A stretch of DNA of 64,000 bases from Fibrobacter sp. UWH4 (GTDB lineage: Bacteria; Fibrobacterota; Fibrobacteria; Fibrobacterales; Fibrobacteraceae), in the NCBI RefSeq assembly GCF_900142475.1, contig NZ_FRAY01000004.1:372001-436000 (forward strand), given 5' to 3'. Every line of letters starts with the position of its first letter. Positions within the stretch are counted from its first letter, which is position 1. The position numbers and the translations under genes were made by a program. Below the pieces are notes generated by a model. It did not search any database. It had not been told where the DNA came from and was given only the letters and a program-made list of their open reading frames with translations. Positions 13,684-61,196 of the stretch are shown piece by piece.

Positions 13684-13772
13684 AATTCAGAATTCAGAGT
13701 TCGGAATTAAGAAATTAGGCGGCGCTGCCAAGATTGTATTAATTCAGAATTCCGAAATTCGAATTCATAATT
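13684..13772. repeat. Heptamer repeat, family B (AATTCRG type), two facing arms
   Basis: Left arm AATTCAG-AATTCAG-AGTTCGG-AATTAAG. The core includes the GGCGGCGCTGCC palindrome-like stretch. The right arm in inverted sense is AATTCAGAATTCCGAAATTCG-AATTCATAATT. It occupies the whole hisS-SGNH gap. Confidence 0.8.
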
Positions 13773-13777
13773 ATACC

Positions 13778-15361
13778 ATGATGTCCCCTTTAAAAGTTCT
13801 CTTATCCATCATCAGCCTGTTCGCCGTGCTGGGGCTAATCGCCCTAATTTACCCCGACGGCGGCATCCATGTCGGAGATTACACGCTCCGTTACCCGAAG
13901 CTCACCGAAATCTTCGAGAAACAGAACTCCGCTATGGGGGATTCGCTTGCGGATTCTTCGGCGGCGGACCCCGAAGATGCCATTCGAGAAATGATGGAAG
14001 CGACCAAACGGAAGGAATTTGCAGCCTTCAGCGACTCGCTCAAATTCTACGAGGACTTTTTTAGAAAGGGCAAAACCCGTTTCGACTTGCCGAACAACGA
14101 TCCGACTTGGTTTGACCGTTTCTTCTTGCACCTGGAACTGGCGAGCCTCGATTCGAACGTGGTCCACATCGTGCACTACGGCGACTCGCAGCTCGAAGAA
14201 GACCGCATTTCGGCGACCATCCGCGAAGACTTGCAGGACGAGTTCGGCGGTGCAGGCCCCGGCATGATGCCGCCGATTATGACCGTACCCTCGATGACGA
14301 CGAGCCACTCCAATTCCGGAGCCCTTTCGCGTTACATCCTGTTCGGCCCCAAGGAAGAAGAAGCGGACCACAGCCGCTACGGACCGCTAGCCCAGTTCGC
14401 GAAACTCGAAGGCGAAGCCGCGATTACAATTCAGAAGCGCAAGGAACGCAAGAACGCGTTCAGCCACGTAGGCGGCTACAGCACCGTCAAGATTCTGATG
14501 AACAAGGGCGCGCACCTCAAGGCGAAGCTCAACGTGAACCAGACTTTTGTGGAAGTCGTCGGTGAAGATGCCGAAGGCAACCCGAAAGAAAAGCGCACGA
14601 CCAAGGTGGTCGACGCAGGCGAGCCCACCGTCGAGACCTACAACAAGCTGAAGGTCTACACCTGGAAACTCAAGGACACAACCTCGATTGCCAAGATGTA
14701 CCTTTCCGGTAACGCCGAAATCTACGCCATTGCGGCAGACGGCGCCTACGGCGTCGCCGTTGACAACGTCGCCATGCGCGGATCTTCGGGTACAATTTTC
14801 CACCGCATTGACTCGGATCTTCTTGCGGAATCTTACAAGGCGATGAACGCCCGCCTGATTATCATGGAATACGGCGGCAACCTCGTTCCGGGCACGAATT
14901 CCGGCAACATCGAATGGACCAAGAAAATCATCACCCGCCAGATTCAGGCAATCCAAAAGGCGAACCCCGATGCAGACATTCTTTTCATCGGCCCTGCCGA
15001 CATGGCACGCCAAAAAGACGGGCAATGGCAAACTTACGCCGGACTCAACATGACCATCAAGGCTCTCCGCGAAGTGGCCCTTGATAATGGCGCCGCCTAC
15101 TGGGACATGCACCGCGTCATGGGTGGAAACGGATCGATGATCAAATGGGTCAACAAGGAACCCGCGCTCGGTTTCACGGACCACATCCACTTTACCCGCA
15201 GGGGTGCGGCCTACATGGGAGACCTTTTCTGCGCAGCACTCCGCATGCACTACGACTACTTCAAGTTCCGCGATCGCCATCACATCAGCGACGAAAAGCT
15301 GAAGGACATCCACGAGTGGAAAAAAAGCGAAAAGGATAGCGCAAAGGAGAATAGCAAGTGA
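13778..15361 (+). CDS. Membrane-anchored SGNH/GDSL-type protein of the O-acylation cluster (first)
   Basis: A 527-residue protein with one N-terminal membrane segment (residues 3-25). HYGDSQLEEDR (about 129-139) is the GDS nucleophile block. ILFIGPADM (about 405) and FTDHIHFTRRGAAYMGDLF (about 466-484) supply the later SGNH blocks, the last with a DxxH pair. Such proteins partner an MBOAT membrane acyltransferase to acetylate exported polysaccharide. The next SGNH gene overlaps it by 4 bases and the MBOAT gene follows, so they form one functional unit. Confidence 0.8.
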   Translation: MMSPLKVLLSIISLFAVLGLIALIYPDGGIHVGDYTLRYPKLTEIFEKQNSAMGDSLADSSAADPEDAIREMMEATKRKEFAAFSDSLKFYEDFFRKGKTRFDLPNNDPTWFDRFFLHLELASLDSNVVHIVHYGDSQLEEDRISATIREDLQDEFGGAGPGMMPPIMTVPSMTTSHSNSGALSRYILFGPKEEEADHSRYGPLAQFAKLEGEAAITIQKRKERKNAFSHVGGYSTVKILMNKGAHLKAKLNVNQTFVEVVGEDAEGNPKEKRTTKVVDAGEPTVETYNKLKVYTWKLKDTTSIAKMYLSGNAEIYAIAADGAYGVAVDNVAMRGSSGTIFHRIDSDLLAESYKAMNARLIIMEYGGNLVPGTNSGNIEWTKKIITRQIQAIQKANPDADILFIGPADMARQKDGQWQTYAGLNMTIKALREVALDNGAAYWDMHRVMGGNGSMIKWVNKEPALGFTDHIHFTRRGAAYMGDLFCAALRMHYDYFKFRDRHHISDEKLKDIHEWKKSEKDSAKENSK

Positions 15362-17091
15362 AGCGTCTCTTCCTTCTTGTGATATTCATCGCATTGGTCG
15401 CCACGAACGCCCTCGCAGGCGAGACAAAGCAACCAACCGCGCCGGGAGCATATTCCATTGACCTGTCGCGCTACGACTTTATCGATTCTTCGCTGAACGT
15501 AATCCAGTTCCCCAAGGGGAACGCCGCGTTCACACCGTTTTTCAATAAGCTGGACACGCTTGTATTCGAAAATAAGGGGCAAGTCCGCATCTTGCATATC
15601 GGCGGTTCGCACCTGCAGGCGGACGTGATTTCCGGACGCATCCGCGAGCACTTTATCAAGGAATATCCGGGAGCATCCGCCGGTCGCGGTTTCGTTTTTC
15701 CCTACTCCGCGGCACGCACCAACACGCCCGCCAGCTACGCCAGTTACTATAAAGGCATCTGGGACATGAACAAGAACGTGCAACGCGAAATCAAGAAGCC
15801 GCTCGGACTTCTCGGCATCGCTGTCAGCACCTCCGACCCGCGCGCCGAAATTTCGATTCTTCTGGACAAGTACAATTCGACACCGCTCTGGGGCGAAACC
15901 AAGTTCCGCCTGTTCGGCTATAGCGACAACAACGATGTCATTCCCGTGCTGCGGGTCGATTCAACCGATATCTACGGCACGCTGGATACCACAAGTCAAA
16001 GTTACGTGTTCACCTCCCCACGGCCGATTGATTCCATACAAATTGCATTTCGCTGGATGGATTCTTTACAGCAGGCGACTGTTGCGCAGTTTATTACCGA
16101 CTCCCTGTTGCAGGATTCCATCGCCCGCGCCGTCGAGGATTCGCTAAAAAAAGCAAATGGAGACACACTTGCAAACGACAAACATGGTTCGGCAGGCTCG
16201 CCGACCTCAAAAATCGAAACCGATGCTCCCGCCAAGATTCCGAACAACGTAGCGATTCCTCAACCTGACGTTGCCCGCGACTCCATGTTCCAGGGAGAAT
16301 GCGACGTTCTTGACACCGCCTGCCTCGCTCGCGAAGAAGCGAAGAACAAGGCTGCAAGCAACAGTTCCCGCAGCTGTGCCAACATGGCGAAGAAGCCCTC
16401 CGTCAACTACGCCGAAGGCGAACTTGATTCCACGAACATCGCCGAAGAGCACTGCATCGCCGACACCGTCGCCGTTCCCGATTCTGTGAAAAAGAACGCC
16501 CGTCCGCGTTTCACGCTCACCGGCATTCTCACCGAAACCGACGCCCCCGGCATCACCTATACGGGCGTAGGAATCAACGGAGCCAAGGTTCATGACTATT
16601 TCGAAGAAGTCTGTCCGCTGTTCGAAAAGCAGCTCGCCTACTACAAGCCCGACCTCGTCATTTTCGCCATCGGCATCAACGACGCCAACGTGCAGCACTT
16701 TAACGACAAGCAGTTCAAGGACGATTATGATAAGCTGATAGCCCGCATCAAGAACGTGAACCCGAACGCAGCGATTATCTTCGAGACCAACAACGACATG
16801 TACCGCAAAGTCAAGAAGAAACGCTACGTGCAGCACCCCAATGGCGACATCGCCCGCAAGGCGTTCTTTGCACTCGCCGAAAAGCACCAGGCCGGCGTCT
16901 GGGACAAGTTCAGCATCATGGGCGGCCTCGGTTCCATGGCCAAGTGGGAAAAGGCGGACCTCGCCAAGGCCGACAAGGTTCATTTCAAACTTTCGGGCTA
17001 CAACCTGCTCGGCGACCTGTTCTACAAGGCTATCATCAACAGCTATCAGGAACACATCGCGAATTTGCCCGCACAAACGAGGAGCGAATAA
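15358..17091 (+). CDS. Secreted SGNH-type protein of the O-acylation cluster (second)
   Basis: A 577-residue protein with a clear signal peptide (MKRLFLLVIFIALVATNALA). ILHIGGSHLQAD (about 80-91) replaces GDS with GGS but keeps the serine. FAIGINDANV (about 435) is the Asn block, and DKVHFKLSGYNLLGDLF (about 539-555) ends it with DxxH. A low-complexity Ala/Asp/Ser region (about 255-390) is inserted between blocks; it is Cys-containing and unlike the first protein. The GTG start overlaps the previous stop (GTGA) and has AAGGAG upstream, which indicates translational coupling. The two proteins look like diverged paralogues. Confidence 0.8.
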   Translation: MKRLFLLVIFIALVATNALAGETKQPTAPGAYSIDLSRYDFIDSSLNVIQFPKGNAAFTPFFNKLDTLVFENKGQVRILHIGGSHLQADVISGRIREHFIKEYPGASAGRGFVFPYSAARTNTPASYASYYKGIWDMNKNVQREIKKPLGLLGIAVSTSDPRAEISILLDKYNSTPLWGETKFRLFGYSDNNDVIPVLRVDSTDIYGTLDTTSQSYVFTSPRPIDSIQIAFRWMDSLQQATVAQFITDSLLQDSIARAVEDSLKKANGDTLANDKHGSAGSPTSKIETDAPAKIPNNVAIPQPDVARDSMFQGECDVLDTACLAREEAKNKAASNSSRSCANMAKKPSVNYAEGELDSTNIAEEHCIADTVAVPDSVKKNARPRFTLTGILTETDAPGITYTGVGINGAKVHDYFEEVCPLFEKQLAYYKPDLVIFAIGINDANVQHFNDKQFKDDYDKLIARIKNVNPNAAIIFETNNDMYRKVKKKRYVQHPNGDIARKAFFALAEKHQAGVWDKFSIMGGLGSMAKWEKADLAKADKVHFKLSGYNLLGDLFYKAIINSYQEHIANLPAQTRSE

Positions 17092-17094
17092 AAA

Positions 17095-17170
17095 GGAACT
17101 TAGAACTTAGACCGCTTCGCTCTTAGAGCTTAGACAAAAGATAGTACTAAGTTCTAAGATCTAAGCTCTG
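17095..17170. repeat. Heptamer repeat, family C, two facing arms with a REP-like core
   Basis: Left arm GAACTTA-GAACTTA-GACC, core CGCTTCGCTCTTAGAGCTTAGAC, right arm CTAAGTT-CTAAGAT-CTAAGCT. It lies between the second SGNH gene and the MBOAT gene. The TTCGCTC core resembles the inserts in the tRNA-Pro relic. Confidence 0.75.
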
Positions 17171-17183
17171 CCAACTAATTCAT

Positions 17184-19034
17184 ATGCTTGACTATTTAAT
17201 ACCATACCTCACTCGCACTTTCTCGTTTGACCCGAACAGTCCGCTGCTGTTTACGCAATTCTACTTCTGGGGATTCTTCGCAGTCGTTTTTGCGTTCCTC
17301 ACCCTCATCAAGAACCGCATTCTACTGCGCAACGCATTCTTGTTTGCGACGAGCATGTTCTTCTATTACAAAACGAGCGGGAGCTACGTTTGCATTCTTA
17401 TTTTCTGCGTGGTTGCGAACTTCTTTATAGGCAAGTGGATTGAACGCGCCGAAGAGCATTGGAAAAAGAAGCTTTGGATGATCATCATCGTCATTATTGA
17501 CCTGCTTGTATTGTGCTACTATAAATATTCCTACTTCTTCTTGGACGCTCTCTACGACTTTACCGGCATCGAGCTTCACGTCTACAATTTCTTTGCCGCC
17601 GCCAGCAACAAGCTGTTTGGCACGAATTCCCTCGTCGACACCATCATCCTGCCCGTAGGCATTTCGTTCTTCACCTTCCAGGCGATTAGCTACTGTATCG
17701 ACATTTACCGCGGCAAAATTTCGGCCGTCAAGAACATTCTCGATTTCGGATTCTATCTCACGTTCTTCCCGCAGCTGGTCGCAGGTCCGATCGTTCGCGC
17801 CGACAAGTTCGTGCCGCAGCTTTACCGCAAATACTTCCTGCCCCGCCGCACCTTCGGCATCGCCGTCTTCTGGATTCTAAACGGACTTGCCAAGAAGATT
17901 ATCTTGAGCGACTACCTCGCCACCAACTTCGTAGACCGCGTTTTTGATACGCCGCTCCTGTTTACGGGACTTGAAAACCTCATCGCCCTGTTCGCCTACT
18001 CGCTGCAGGTTTACGCCGACTTCTCCGGCTACACCGACATCGCTATCGGCGTGGCCCTCCTGATGGGATTCCGCCTACCTCAAAACTTCAACAGCCCCTA
18101 CAAGGCGCTCAGTCCCACCGAATTCTGGCGTCGTTGGCACATTTCCCTTTCGAGCTGGTGGCGCGACTACCTGTACATTCCGCTAGGCGGTAACCGCAAC
18201 GCCACCCTCGGCACCTACTTCTGGATGGCCTTCTTGAGCCTTGTCGCCATTCTCCTTTCCGGTAGCGTCTGGGTCGGCATCGCCCTCGGCCTGTTCTTCC
18301 TCTACATCGCTATTTATGCTTATTTCAAGCCGGATTCCCGCAAGTTCATCACCACCAACATGAACGCCATGTCCACGCAGATTGTGGGCGGCTGGTGGCA
18401 CGGAGCGAGTTGGAACTTTATCATCTGGGGTGGCCTCAATGGTTTCGGCCAGGTATTCAATAAGTTTTGGGTCAAACGCAGCAGGACGTTCCGCGCCTCG
18501 GCAGCCTTCCTGCTTTTCGCCGCTAGCGCCATCATCTTCAAGCAGACGCACACCGCCATCTTCGCGATTACCGCGGTCTATTTCGGCGTTCTCTTCGCAG
18601 GCATCTACGCCGTCATGATTTTCCGCCTGTTCAGCGACAAATACTTCCACGGCCTTTACGTTGCCTGGAACGTCACCCTGACCTTCGTGTTCATCACGTT
18701 TACGCGACTTTTCTTCCGCGCCGGTTCAAACCTCGACCCCGCCGAAGCAAACGAAGTCGCCTGGAACACCGCCAAGAACATGGTGCAGCAGATGGGTACC
18801 GCCTGGAAATGGGACACGCTCGGCTCCATCGCCTGGGAACACATCAACATCATCCTCGTGTTTGTCGCGGGCATGCTCATCCACTGGGTCCCGAAAAAAT
18901 TCAAGAGCCGCTACCGTATCGCATTTGCGTCGCAGCCGGTTCCGCTCATGGTTATTTCGACCGCTTTCATCATCTTCGTCATTTACCAGTTTATGAGCGC
19001 AGACAGCTGCCCGTTCATCTACTTCCAGTTCTAG
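17184..19034 (+). CDS. MBOAT-family O-acyltransferase (AlgI-like)
   Basis: Multi-pass inner-membrane enzyme that passes acetyl groups across the membrane for polysaccharide O-acetylation. At 616 residues it is longer than AlgI (about 520). TEFWRRWHISLSSWWRDYLY (about 312-331) with IPLGGNR, and GGWWHGASWNFIIWG (about 398-412) with the putative catalytic His, are the AlgI/DltB signatures. About 12-14 hydrophobic segments are visible. It follows two SGNH genes that would complete the transfer outside. The glycan substrate is unknown. A perfect terminator follows. Confidence 0.92.
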   Translation: MLDYLIPYLTRTFSFDPNSPLLFTQFYFWGFFAVVFAFLTLIKNRILLRNAFLFATSMFFYYKTSGSYVCILIFCVVANFFIGKWIERAEEHWKKKLWMIIIVIIDLLVLCYYKYSYFFLDALYDFTGIELHVYNFFAAASNKLFGTNSLVDTIILPVGISFFTFQAISYCIDIYRGKISAVKNILDFGFYLTFFPQLVAGPIVRADKFVPQLYRKYFLPRRTFGIAVFWILNGLAKKIILSDYLATNFVDRVFDTPLLFTGLENLIALFAYSLQVYADFSGYTDIAIGVALLMGFRLPQNFNSPYKALSPTEFWRRWHISLSSWWRDYLYIPLGGNRNATLGTYFWMAFLSLVAILLSGSVWVGIALGLFFLYIAIYAYFKPDSRKFITTNMNAMSTQIVGGWWHGASWNFIIWGGLNGFGQVFNKFWVKRSRTFRASAAFLLFAASAIIFKQTHTAIFAITAVYFGVLFAGIYAVMIFRLFSDKYFHGLYVAWNVTLTFVFITFTRLFFRAGSNLDPAEANEVAWNTAKNMVQQMGTAWKWDTLGSIAWEHINIILVFVAGMLIHWVPKKFKSRYRIAFASQPVPLMVISTAFIIFVIYQFMSADSCPFIYFQF

Positions 19035-19162: not shown

Positions 19163-19272
19163 GCATATAAAGCCGTCTGTTTTTCGATTTCATATGCTTT
19201 GGCCCACACAGGGAAAGTTAATTTATTCAAATCAAGCATATAAAAGAGACTTTCTCTGCAATTTATATGCTT
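19163..19272. repeat. Two hairpin units (GCATATAAA arms) upstream of the methyltransferase gene
   Basis: Unit 1 spans 19163-19197 (35 nt): GCATATAAA, loop, TTTCATATGC. Unit 2 spans 19234-19272, with arms AAGCATATAAA and TTTATATGCTT (core 35 nt). Loops are about 17 nt and unrelated in sequence. The format matches the four units at 20902-21182, which share the inner arm TATAAA/TTTATA but have a different outer arm. Confidence 0.75.
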
Positions 19273-19300
19273 CGGCATTCGTAAAAGTTATATTTGGGGC

Positions 19301-20845
19301 GTGATTCACACTCCGGCAACAAATTCCGCTTTCGAAAAGCGCATCAAGCGACAAGTCATCGGCAAGCCACACCGATTTCAGGCGGTTGTCCCGCTCGGTT
19401 TTGAAAAAACGCTCGCCCACGAACTTAGCAGCATCTTAAAAAACGGCGATTCGGTCAAGACACCCGACACCAATTCTCTCCCGCACGTCACCGGAGACGG
19501 CAAAGTTGAATTCACCGCGAAAATCACCGACGCGTGGAAAGCGGTCGCCTGCAGCCGCATTGCCAACCGTATTCTGATGCACATCGCCGACTTCAAGGCT
19601 GAAAACTTCCGCAATTTTGAAAAGAAAGCCGCCGAAATTCCATGGGAGCTCTATTTAGACGAGAGAACAGGTAGCGTCCAACAGGCGATAGACGAGAAAT
19701 CAAATCCTACTAATTCAAACAACGTAGCTCGCAACACCATCAACATCCATGTTACCTGCAGGCATTCACGCCTTTACCACAGCGACGCCGTCGCAGAAAG
19801 GCTACAGAATATTATCGAAGGGGAACGCCGCCTCGCTCCTGCAGTCACGGCATCCGCTACCCCCTCTGCGGGGACACCCCGCAACACCCCGTTCAAAGTC
19901 ATCCTCGCAAAGGCGGGGAACTCCAACCCAATAAAAAATTTCGAACAACATTTATACGTTACCTTCCTCGATGATCGTTGCACCATTTGGCTAGACCTCG
20001 CCGGAGAAGAGCTCTATAGACGTGGCCACGAACGGTTCGTCAACGACGCCCCACTCAAGGAAACAATTGCCGCCGCAATGATCTTTGAGGCACAAAGTAT
20101 CATCCAAAATTCTTCAAATCAGTCCCATCACATTTTCACACAAGACACCCCCTTCCGAGCAACCCTTTTCGACTTGATGGCAGGCAGCGGCACCTTCAGC
20201 CTCGAAGCCGCCTACATGGCAAACGGATTCATTCCCGGCATCTGCCGCGACTTTGCACTCAAGCACCAGCCCGCCTTCAAAGAAGCAACGTGGAAGTTCT
20301 TAACTAGACGAGAGAACGGGCAAAGCCCTACAGACGAAAGACTAGAGGTTGCTGCCGCAACAATCACTAAAATTGTCACGAGCGACATCTCGGAACACGC
20401 TATCGAAATCATCAGGCACAATGTGGAATGCAGCCCGCTCGCAAGCTTCGCTCCAAACGGGAACTCGCCCACCATCACCCCGCAACTCCGCGACTTTTTC
20501 AGCTACACCTCAAAAGAAATTGCAGGCCTTTGCGGCGACACCTCACCCATTCTCGTGTTGAATCCCCCCTATGGCAAGCGCCTCGACTTTGACGCCCCGA
20601 AACTTTATACTAAAATTGGGCGTCATCTCGCTTCGCTCGCAAGCGGATTAAGGCAGCTCGGCAAATTTTTCAGTGTCGCCATTCTCGTCCCGAAAGACGA
20701 TACACGCGATGGCGCCAGATACACCTGCACCGCAAATCTTTTACGCGAATGCCCCGCCCTTTCGCCGGAGAACAACGCTGCAGCCAAACACATCGTCACA
20801 AGCCACGGCGGCCTTACGCTGAATGTGCTTATTGCAAAAATCTAG
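19301..20845 (+). CDS. RlmL-type 23S rRNA guanine-N2 methyltransferase (THUMP-UPF0020) with inserted repeats
   Basis: SAM-dependent methyltransferase. FQAVVPLGFEKTLAHEL (about 27-43) starts the THUMP region. LFDLMAGSGTFSLEAAYM (about 287-304) is the SAM loop, and LNPPYGKRL (about 421-429) the catalytic NPPY motif for exocyclic amino groups. At 514 residues it is longer than the usual 370-390. The excess comes from low-complexity linkers whose DNA looks like REP palindromes: TAGACGAGAGAAC at 19656-19668 and again at 20305-20317, and a GTCATCCTCGCAAAGGCGGGG element at 19898-19918. All keep the frame. The start is GTG, with -10-like TATATTTG ending 5 bases before it, so a leaderless mRNA is predicted. 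Target position is inferred from the family only. Confidence 0.85.
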   Translation: MIHTPATNSAFEKRIKRQVIGKPHRFQAVVPLGFEKTLAHELSSILKNGDSVKTPDTNSLPHVTGDGKVEFTAKITDAWKAVACSRIANRILMHIADFKAENFRNFEKKAAEIPWELYLDERTGSVQQAIDEKSNPTNSNNVARNTINIHVTCRHSRLYHSDAVAERLQNIIEGERRLAPAVTASATPSAGTPRNTPFKVILAKAGNSNPIKNFEQHLYVTFLDDRCTIWLDLAGEELYRRGHERFVNDAPLKETIAAAMIFEAQSIIQNSSNQSHHIFTQDTPFRATLFDLMAGSGTFSLEAAYMANGFIPGICRDFALKHQPAFKEATWKFLTRRENGQSPTDERLEVAAATITKIVTSDISEHAIEIIRHNVECSPLASFAPNGNSPTITPQLRDFFSYTSKEIAGLCGDTSPILVLNPPYGKRLDFDAPKLYTKIGRHLASLASGLRQLGKFFSVAILVPKDDTRDGARYTCTANLLRECPALSPENNAAAKHIVTSHGGLTLNVLIAKI

Positions 20846-20901
20846 TGACATTCACAGACGCAGACCATTTTTCGCCAAAGCATTTTTAAATAGAGCTATT
20901 T

Positions 20902-21182
20902 TACCTATAAACCAAGCTAAAGTCAATCATTTATAGGTACGTCCCCCAAGCAAATATAAAAGTGTACCTATAAAAGACTCAAAATAAGAATGTTTATAGG
21001 TAGTCGGCCTTAAATCACAAACAAACCAAGTAAACGTTTTTCATCATTTTTATTATTTTTACCTATAAGGCCCTATTTAAACAAACCGTTATAGGTACAA
21101 TGCCCCAAACATCAACCAATTACAGAAGTAAAAAAAGGCTTTTCGTACCTATAAACTTCATTTTTTCCGATGTTTATAGGTA
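20902..21182. repeat. Array of four uniform hairpins (TACCTATAAA arms)
   Basis: Units at 20902-20939, 20965-21002, 21060-21097 and 21146-21182 are 38, 38, 38 and 37 nt long. Each has arms TACCTATAAA and TTTATAGGTA (9 bp in the third) around a 17-20 nt loop, and the four loops share no sequence. Spacers are 25, 57 and 48 nt. The array fills the 351-bp gap between two convergent genes. No terminator-like T-run or reading frame explains it. Confidence 0.85.
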
Positions 21183-21196
21183 CACCTAGCGAAAAA

Positions 21197-21733
21197 CTAC
21201 TCTGTCGGCAACACCTTCGTGCGGCGCATAAATGCAAGCGTTTCTTTTTCGCCCTTTTCGGCAAGCATCTTTAGCAGGTAAAGCAACTTCTTGTAAGTCG
21301 TCTCCGTCATTTTTTCACGGGCGGTACTTTTGGTAAGGTACAGCAACGGAGATTCCTGCGTGTACCCCGCCTTGTTATACGTCTTGGAAGCAGCCACACG
21401 ATCGCAAAACATTTCCTTGATGTAGCGGTCGGGCATATCGATGGGCACCAACTTCTTGGTCGCCATTTCGTAGTCGTACCAGAATTCAAAATGATGCTTG
21501 TTTCGGCCCTTGTGGTGCATCCATGCGAGGCTGTAGCCCTTGTCGTTGCGTTCGCCGTTATTTGGCGACTGGTCACCCAAATAATACTTCGCCCCGGGAA
21601 TAAACTCCGTCGGACTGTACTTGGACAAATCATGGAACAGGCCCTGAAAGCCAATTCCCGCCTTAAAGCAAAGCCGAATCACCTCGTTGCGGTGCTTAGT
21701 TATCGTCAAGAAATGTTTTATTGGGTGAAACAT
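21197..21733 (-). CDS. DUF5662 family protein
   Basis: A 178-residue protein of the uncharacterised DUF5662 family. MFHPIKHFLTITKHRNEVIR is the family's opening, followed by GIGFQGLFHDLSKYSPTEF and AWMHHKGRNKHHFEFW. The several His and Asp residues suggest a metal-binding, HD-like helical protein, but no function is established. The second Met (21733) is preferred: it matches the family start, and a -10-like TATTTT ends 10 bases before it. The alternative ATG at 21742 adds three residues. No Shine-Dalgarno sequence is seen. Confidence 0.8.
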   Translation of the reverse strand: MFHPIKHFLTITKHRNEVIRLCFKAGIGFQGLFHDLSKYSPTEFIPGAKYYLGDQSPNNGERNDKGYSLAWMHHKGRNKHHFEFWYDYEMATKKLVPIDMPDRYIKEMFCDRVAASKTYNKAGYTQESPLLYLTKSTAREKMTETTYKKLLYLLKMLAEKGEKETLAFMRRTKVLPTE

Positions 21734-21844
21734 AGCACGCATAAAAATAGAATTTTCTACATTTTCATTCGAAATTTGGCGTTTTCATCCGTAATTTTTT
21801 ACGGGTAGCGTCGCAGAGCTTAAAGACACAAAAAGAGGATTATT

Positions 21845-50860: not shown

Positions 50861-50936
50861 TAGTTCAGAATTCGGAATTCAGATTTCAGAATGGACTCAA
50901 GATTTCCGAACTCCGAACTCTGAAATCCGAATTTTT
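50861..50936. repeat. Heptamer repeat, family B, two facing arms
   Basis: Left arm TTCAGAATTCGG-AATTCAG-ATTTCAG, core AATGGACTCAAG, right arm ATTTCCG-AACTCCG-AACTCTG-AAATCCG-AATTT. The yajC -10 (TATATT, 50938-50943) begins at its edge. Confidence 0.82.
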
Positions 50937-61112: not shown

Positions 61113-61196
61113 ATCTAATTCAGATTTCGGTGTTCGGAATTCAGAATTACCTATATAAAATTTAATTCATAATTCTGAAATCTGAATTCCGAATTA
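61113..61196. repeat. Heptamer repeat, family B, two facing arms
   Basis: Left arm AATTCAG-ATTTCGG-TGTTCGG-AATTCAG-AATT, core ACCTATATAAAATTT, right arm AATTCATAATTCTG-AAATCTG-AATTCCG-AATTAT. It spans the gap between mutS (its stop lies in the repeat) and the HD gene. Confidence 0.82.

What the first reader, a model, noticed from the sequence alone, without database searches (positions are those of the whole stretch)
19163..21182. A single gene bracketed by arrays of uniform-length hairpins with variable loops
Upstream of the methyltransferase gene are two units (35 and 39 nt, arms GCATATAAA/TTTATATGC). Downstream are four units (38, 38, 38, 37 nt, arms TACCTATAAA/TTTATAGGTA). All share the inner arm TATAAA/TTTATA and a 17-20 nt loop; outer arms are specific to each side, and loops differ completely. 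Constant arms and length with free loop sequence point to a protein- or ssDNA-structure-recognised element rather than terminators. Possibilities: binding sites of a dimeric regulator, recombination sites, or products of a REP-type transposase.
Basis: seen in the sequence. Interest (0 to 1): 0.8.

Follow-up and report, generated by a model that had tools for sequence, protein, structure and literature searches.

The report
Nuclease gene with mobile palindrome arrays
The hairpin-like units are not hairpins but evenly phased protein-binding sites that occur in about 14 arrays across this Fibrobacter genome, and they belong to a hitherto undescribed single-gene nuclease family that carries its own version of the array in front of its gene and whose arrays have spread like small mobile elements in gut bacteria of at least two phyla.

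Summary
TACCTATAA-N19..21-TTATAGGTA forms 14 arrays of 3-5 units in the genome (reversed-pattern control: 0). Unit spacing is quantised at 63/74/85/95/106 bp (6-10 helical turns), AT content oscillates at ~10.5 bp, and arms mutate independently: double-stranded protein sites, not hairpins. Comparing flanking genes in Fibrobacter and Clostridia revealed one protein family (~275 aa, no Pfam/NCBIfam model; C-terminal PD-(D/E)XK/EDxHD-type nuclease fold, catalytic-like residues invariant). Of 54 homologues, 49 have a phased palindrome array directly upstream and 53 have one on some side, each with its own arm sequence; arm similarity tracks mainly the N-terminal domain. This genome has two such genes with two separate array sets. 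In other genomes, arrays are homologous over exactly the array interval, flank the gene as direct copies, and (as in the window) fill intergenic gaps that are 9-62 bp in relatives: arrays are mobile units. Arms in solo arrays evolve ~10 times slower than loops. Best reading: a REPIN/RAYT-like partnership built on a different enzyme and on dsDNA-phased sites. Nuclease action, spreading mechanism and host benefit are untested.

The parts
20902..21182 (.). TACC-type array of four phased palindromic units; an insertion between RlmL-like and DUF5662 genes (gap 358 bp here and in G037; 9-62 bp in six other species)
20902..20939 (.). unit 1: TACCTATAAA-N18-TTTATAGGTA
20965..21002 (.). unit 2, 63 bp (6 turns) from unit 1
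21060..21097 (.). unit 3 (arms TACCTATAA/TTATAGGTA), 95 bp (9 turns) from unit 2
21146..21182 (.). unit 4, 37 bp, 85.5 bp centre to centre (8 turns) from unit 3
19163..19270 (.). pair of GCATATAAA-type units (19163-19197, 19236-19270; 73 bp = 7 turns apart): orphan or relic array of another specificity; no gene with this arm type found in this genome; only one further unit genome-wide (C1:331225)
19301..20845 (+). RlmL-like RNA methyltransferase gene (UPF0020): bystander between the two arrays
   Evidence: present with short empty flanks in other species
21197..21742 (-). DUF5662 gene: bystander, convergent with the methyltransferase gene

Best explanation
The window carries one solo copy of a dispersed, array-type mobile element. 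Its units are inverted pairs of ~10-bp half-sites bound as double-stranded DNA by a cognate protein, one dimer per unit; units stand a whole number of helical turns apart, so 3-5 dimers line up on one face of a bent or wrapped DNA and form one nucleoprotein complex. The protein is a ~275-aa family with an N-terminal recognition domain and a C-terminal PD-(D/E)XK (EDxHD-like) nuclease domain; its gene (outside the window, G000:C5:39239-40054) sits behind one array, which probably also controls its expression. Arrays move as whole units, alone or as array-gene-array, most likely through cutting and repair initiated by the protein; solo arrays are the non-autonomous copies. Several families with different arm sequences coexist without mixing. 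Shown: phasing, gene-array linkage, one array specificity per gene, whole-array copying, purifying selection on arms. Inferred: that this protein binds the arms, that it cuts DNA, that it drives the copying, and why solo arrays stay under selection.
For: Genome-wide arrays with zero reversed-control matches. Helical quantisation: 40 TACC spacings, Rayleigh p ~1e-14; 69 spacings from other families peak at 10.5 bp with R=0.94 (arrays are partly related, so the p-value is nominal). AT content peaks every ~10.5 bp around unit centres. Arm core ACCTATAA almost invariant, mismatches one-sided. Unbiased comparison of ORFs near arrays from Fibrobacter and Clostridia: the top family is one ~275-aa protein next to arrays in 6 Clostridia and 10 Fibrobacter genome records (some Fibrobacter entries are the same genome under two names). 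49/54 homologues have a phased array upstream, 53/54 on some side, with family-specific arms. Arm similarity follows protein identity (rho 0.25, 0/2000 permutations; N-terminal part 0.37, C-terminal 0.135). All nine array-rich genomes have the gene; gene-free genomes show no excess, with two weak exceptions. Second gene copy in this genome has its own array set (TTACATACTAA, five loci). Mobility: G021 arrays homologous across loops and spacers with edges at first and last arm; G038 and JAFUGL copies mostly 68-87% in loops/spacers (one pair 53%) vs 43-61% in flanks; nine loci with arrays on both sides of the gene, direct copies where read in full; empty sites at the window locus. Selection: arm core 3/736 vs loops 48/913 changes, P=1e-9. 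Nuclease fold: padloc PDC-S68 C-terminus E=1e-24; VIA Z 8.8 homing endonuclease I-Bth0305I, Z 8.1 TnsA, Z 6.8 Vsr; E170, E216, H217 in 54/54 and D201 in 53/54.
Against: No binding or cutting data. In this genome the TACC arrays are too old: loops/spacers are not more alike than background, so mobility of the window's own copy rests on relatives and on the empty sites. No target-site duplication was seen, so the spreading chemistry is unknown. Strong selection on arms of solo arrays is not expected of idle transposon relics and hints at a host-level role. Foldseek alone gave no PDB hit under E 0.001; a Z near 8 is only modest evidence.
Confidence: 0.6

Rival explanations
1. Arrays are chromosome-architecture or regulatory sites: the nuclease-fold protein is a DNA-bending/bridging factor (like a nucleoid organiser), not a mobility enzyme; array copies arose by ordinary duplication.
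For: Helical phasing and periodic AT content fit wrapping; arms under strong purifying selection at solo sites; arrays spread over the chromosome at about 14 sites; a gene-proximal array in front of nearly every homologue looks like autoregulation.
Against: Patchy presence in the genus (gene absent from about a third of species), up to eight paralogues with different arms per genome, location turnover between species, whole-array homology ending exactly at array edges, conserved catalytic-like residues.
Confidence: 0.2
2. Defence or toxin module: a nuclease with array-tethering, the solo arrays keeping the enzyme bound and harmless; selection on arms comes from toxicity of free enzyme.
For: Patchy, multi-copy, fast specificity change and cross-phylum occurrence resemble defence or selfish genes; C-terminal domain shared with PADLOC candidate defence proteins.
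Against: The PADLOC match is only the generic nuclease domain; genes stand alone among housekeeping genes, not in defence islands; no direct evidence of toxicity.
Confidence: 0.12
3. RNA or ssDNA hairpins (terminators, REP hairpins).
For: Palindromic units, intergenic, 7 of 14 arrays between convergent genes.
Against: No T-run; one-sided arm mismatches (23 vs 2); spacing in helical turns.
Confidence: 0.03

Closest known systems
REPIN / RAYT (TnpA-REP) systems
   Same: Dispersed intergenic palindromic units, several families per genome each linked to its own single-copy gene with units beside it; units conserved, spacers free (PMC3116915; PMC8266576).
   Different: RAYTs are HuH Y1 enzymes acting on single-stranded hairpins with compensatory changes; here a PD-(D/E)XK/EDxHD-type fold and helically phased dsDNA half-site pairs with independent arms, 3-5(8) units per array.
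EDxHD / Vsr-like homing endonucleases (I-Bth0305I) and TnsA of Tn7
   Same: Best structural matches of the C-terminal domain (Z 8.8 and 8.1); TnsA works at transposon ends that carry several protein-binding sites (general knowledge).
   Different: No intron, intein, TnsB/TnsC or DDE partner; no sequence family in common; N-terminal domain differs.
Rpn / YhgA-like recombination-promoting nucleases (PF04754, PF12784)
   Same: Multi-copy PD-(D/E)XK-type nucleases linked to DNA mobility and phage defence (PMC5350276, PMC10327210, abstracts).
   Different: No Pfam match; no palindrome arrays reported for Rpn as far as I know.
MITEs and solo LTRs
   Same: Short non-autonomous copies derived from a gene-bearing element; direct array copies flank the gene.
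   Different: No terminal inverted repeats beyond the units, no target duplication seen; arms kept by selection long after loops diverged.

Membership tests
REPIN/RAYT | HuH Y1 transposase linked to the repeats | tested here: not met
   Linked protein has no Pfam/NCBIfam match and a PD-(D/E)XK-like C-terminal fold
REPIN/RAYT | Hairpin with compensatory arm changes, recognised as ssDNA | tested here: not met
   One-sided changes 23, same change on both sides 2; helical phasing
REPIN/RAYT | Dispersed intergenic copies with one cognate gene per repeat family | tested here: met
PD-(D/E)XK / EDxHD nuclease superfamily (fold) | alpha/beta core with E..D..ExH-type residues conserved | tested here: met
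   AF2 pLDDT 87; residues invariant; PDC-S68 C-terminus E=1e-24; VIA Z 8.8 (modest)
PD-(D/E)XK / EDxHD nuclease superfamily (fold) | DNA cleavage | not testable with these tools
   needs biochemistry
Tn7-like transposon | TnsB/TnsC partners and target duplication | tested here: not met
   Gene stands alone between housekeeping genes; no obvious target duplication in aligned copies
Rpn family | PF04754/PF12784 match | tested here: not met
   no match among 14 members up to E=1
Intrinsic terminators | GC-rich stem followed by T-run | tested here: not met
   AT-rich stems, no T-run after the units
Chromosome-organising sites (matS, parS, ram type) | bound by an architectural protein, positional bias on the chromosome | tested here: inconclusive
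   Arrays on most large contigs; no ordered chromosome available

The most novel reading that the evidence does not exclude
A new class of mobile genetic element: a stand-alone EDxHD/PD-(D/E)XK nuclease whose element ends are phased arrays of dimer sites on wrapped DNA, which spreads gene-less arrays that the host then keeps, with specificity switching gene by gene and transfer between Fibrobacterota and Bacillota.
Probability: 0.5. Interest if true: 0.88.

Novelty: categorically new. Interest (0 to 1): 0.82.

Why it matters
It links an uncharacterised, widespread gut-bacterial protein family to its likely DNA targets with base-level predictions, provides dozens of natural protein/half-site pairs for decoding DNA recognition, and offers a second, enzymatically unrelated example of the REPIN-RAYT way of life. 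The conserved solo arrays make it testable whether bacteria put such elements to use, for example in folding or marking the chromosome.

Tried and rejected
Regulon idea: genes beside the 14 arrays are unrelated housekeeping genes, 7 of 14 arrays between convergent pairs. A Fibrobacter lipoprotein family near many arrays was dismissed as an abundant paralogous family (from memory; sequences). Phage or plasmid origin: no relative confirmed in viral contigs; in phage records one full-length-like hit on an unannotated 4-kb faecal contig; plasmid hits are only the C-terminal domain of helicases. Single units in Enterovibrio, Nostoc, Pantoea and others, and single units in nine viral contigs, look like chance single matches. 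Homology among this genome's own TACC arrays with equal spacing patterns: not above background. PDB by sequence: nothing convincing. Literature for such arrays: none found in the open-access library, so novelty is limited to what that library holds.

Full report
OBSERVATION. All six units are present at the stated positions. Upstream of the RlmL-like gene are two 35-bp units with arms GCATATAAA; downstream are four 37-38-bp units with arms TACCTATAA(A). They are far beyond chance: 29 exact genome-wide matches of the TACC pattern against 0 for the reversed control, 39 with up to three mismatches against 0.

ANATOMY. In this 3.70-Mb genome (window = C4:372001-436000) the TACC units form 14 arrays of 3-5 units, all intergenic. 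Centre-to-centre distances cluster at 63, 74, 85, 95 and 106 bp, that is 6 to 10 helical turns (40 distances, Rayleigh p about 1e-14). AT content around unit centres oscillates with about 10.5 bp, through the loop and the inter-unit spacer. The half-site core ACCTATAA is almost invariant while loops are free; where an arm position varies it varies on one side (23 cases) rather than equally on both (2 cases). This is the signature of protein dimers lined up on one face of bent double-stranded DNA, not of RNA or ssDNA hairpins.

WIDER DISTRIBUTION. The same architecture, with the same spacings and core but other outer arms (GGGGCR, GGCA, TGGG, TACA, mixed), occurs in many species of the genus. 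A pattern scan of GTDB genomes found TACCTATAA arrays with 73-75-bp or 84-bp period also in gut and rumen Clostridia: Lachnospiraceae, Eubacteriales, Saccharofermentans, Ruminococcus. Named records with matching contig lengths identify the genus as Fibrobacter (G037 = Fibro_02, G038 = F. succinogenes RUG14562).

THE PROTEIN. An all-against-all comparison of ORFs near arrays gave one family shared between phyla and directly beside arrays: about 275 aa, in 6 Clostridia and 10 Fibrobacter genome records, a few of which are the same genome under two names. It has no Pfam or NCBIfam model. Its C-terminal part matches the C-terminal nuclease domain of PADLOC candidate PDC-S68 (E=1e-24) and of AAA/RecD-like helicases. 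The AlphaFold model (pLDDT 87) aligns best with homing endonuclease I-Bth0305I (Z 8.8), Bax1 (8.2), TnsA (8.1) and Vsr (6.8) (modest scores). E170, E216 and H217 are invariant in 54 homologues, D201 in 53. The family is patchy: 28 of 41 genus genomes match, with one to eight copies, a few of them only fragments.

GENE-ARRAY PARTNERSHIP. A de novo search for repeated palindromes, blind to arm sequence, finds a phased array upstream of 49 of 54 homologues and on some side of 53. Arms differ by paralogue (TACCTATAA, TTACATACTAA, TTTACGGACTAA, TGTCACTAA, GTACCTGCTAA, GGCTGACTAA and others). Arm similarity follows protein similarity, more for the N-terminal part (rho 0.37) than for the nuclease part (0.135), pointing to the N-terminus as reader of the arm. 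Spacings of the non-TACC families again follow 10.5 bp (R 0.94). This genome holds two genes, C5:39239-40054 with the TACC array and C6:92437-93198 with a TTACATACTAA array, and the second specificity also has solo arrays at other loci: two separate systems in one cell. The GCA units in the window have no gene of their type among the homologues found in this genome and are best read as orphans.

MOBILITY. In G021, five array copies of the GTACCTGCT family align over the whole array including loops and spacers, and homology stops at the outermost arms. In G038 and a Lachnospiraceae genome, most array copies compared share 68-87% of loop and spacer bases (one pair 53%) against 43-61% in flanks. 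At nine loci arrays lie on both sides of the gene; in the cases read in full (L304, L306, L307) they are direct copies. At the window locus, the RlmL-DUF5662 gap is 358 bp with the array in G000 and G037 but 9-62 bp in six other species. In this genome itself the arrays are too diverged to show copying.

SELECTION. Between G000 and G037 the arm core changed in 3 of 736 positions against 48 of 913 in loops (P about 1e-9), leaving out one locus with a spurious extra unit. Solo arrays are therefore still constrained.

INTERPRETATION. The best single reading is a REPIN/RAYT-like partnership using a different enzyme and a different recognition principle. Binding, cleavage, the role of the protein in spreading, and the reason for selection on solo arrays are inferred. 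Rivals are an architectural role and a defence or toxin role; they overlap with the main reading, since an element may be put to use by its host.

LIMITS. Genomes are drafts and most are unnamed; arrays and homologues are phylogenetically related, so p-values are nominal; literature was searched only in an open-access library.

Noticed in passing
G000: C2 464069/492981, C4 363092/392902 (the second is the window array), C5 9572/40228: Three of the 14 TACC arrays' neighbour distances are 29-30.6 kb; three gaps within any 2.5-kb band under 100 kb have a simulated probability of about 0.014, so suggestive only.
   Followed up: partly
window 13778-19034: Two long secreted-type ORFs followed by an MBOAT acyltransferase gene look like a polysaccharide O-acetylation cluster (MBOAT by Pfam; the rest by eye).
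   Followed up: no
window 13684-13769, 17080-17169, 50868-50926, 61116-61181: Intergenic stretches of degenerate AATTCAGAATT or ACTTAGAACTTAG motifs in both orientations; origin unknown.
   Followed up: no
L047, L049, L059 (G022, G016): Arrays with mixed arms (TACC, TACA, GGCA, GACC) inside one array, and no gene found in G022: possibly arrays in transition between specificities or decaying after gene loss.
   Followed up: partly
L103 (G018), L092 (G031) versus L093 (G019), L096 (G038): Arrays beside the same neighbouring gene carry GGGGCG arms in two species and GTACC arms in two others, suggesting a wholesale arm switch at a kept site or repeated insertion.
   Followed up: partly
L182, L209, L244 (Eubacteriales S27M_St_58): Arrays of 7-8 units at exactly 84 bp; in L182 the loops are nearly identical, suggesting recent tandem growth by unit duplication.
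   Followed up: no
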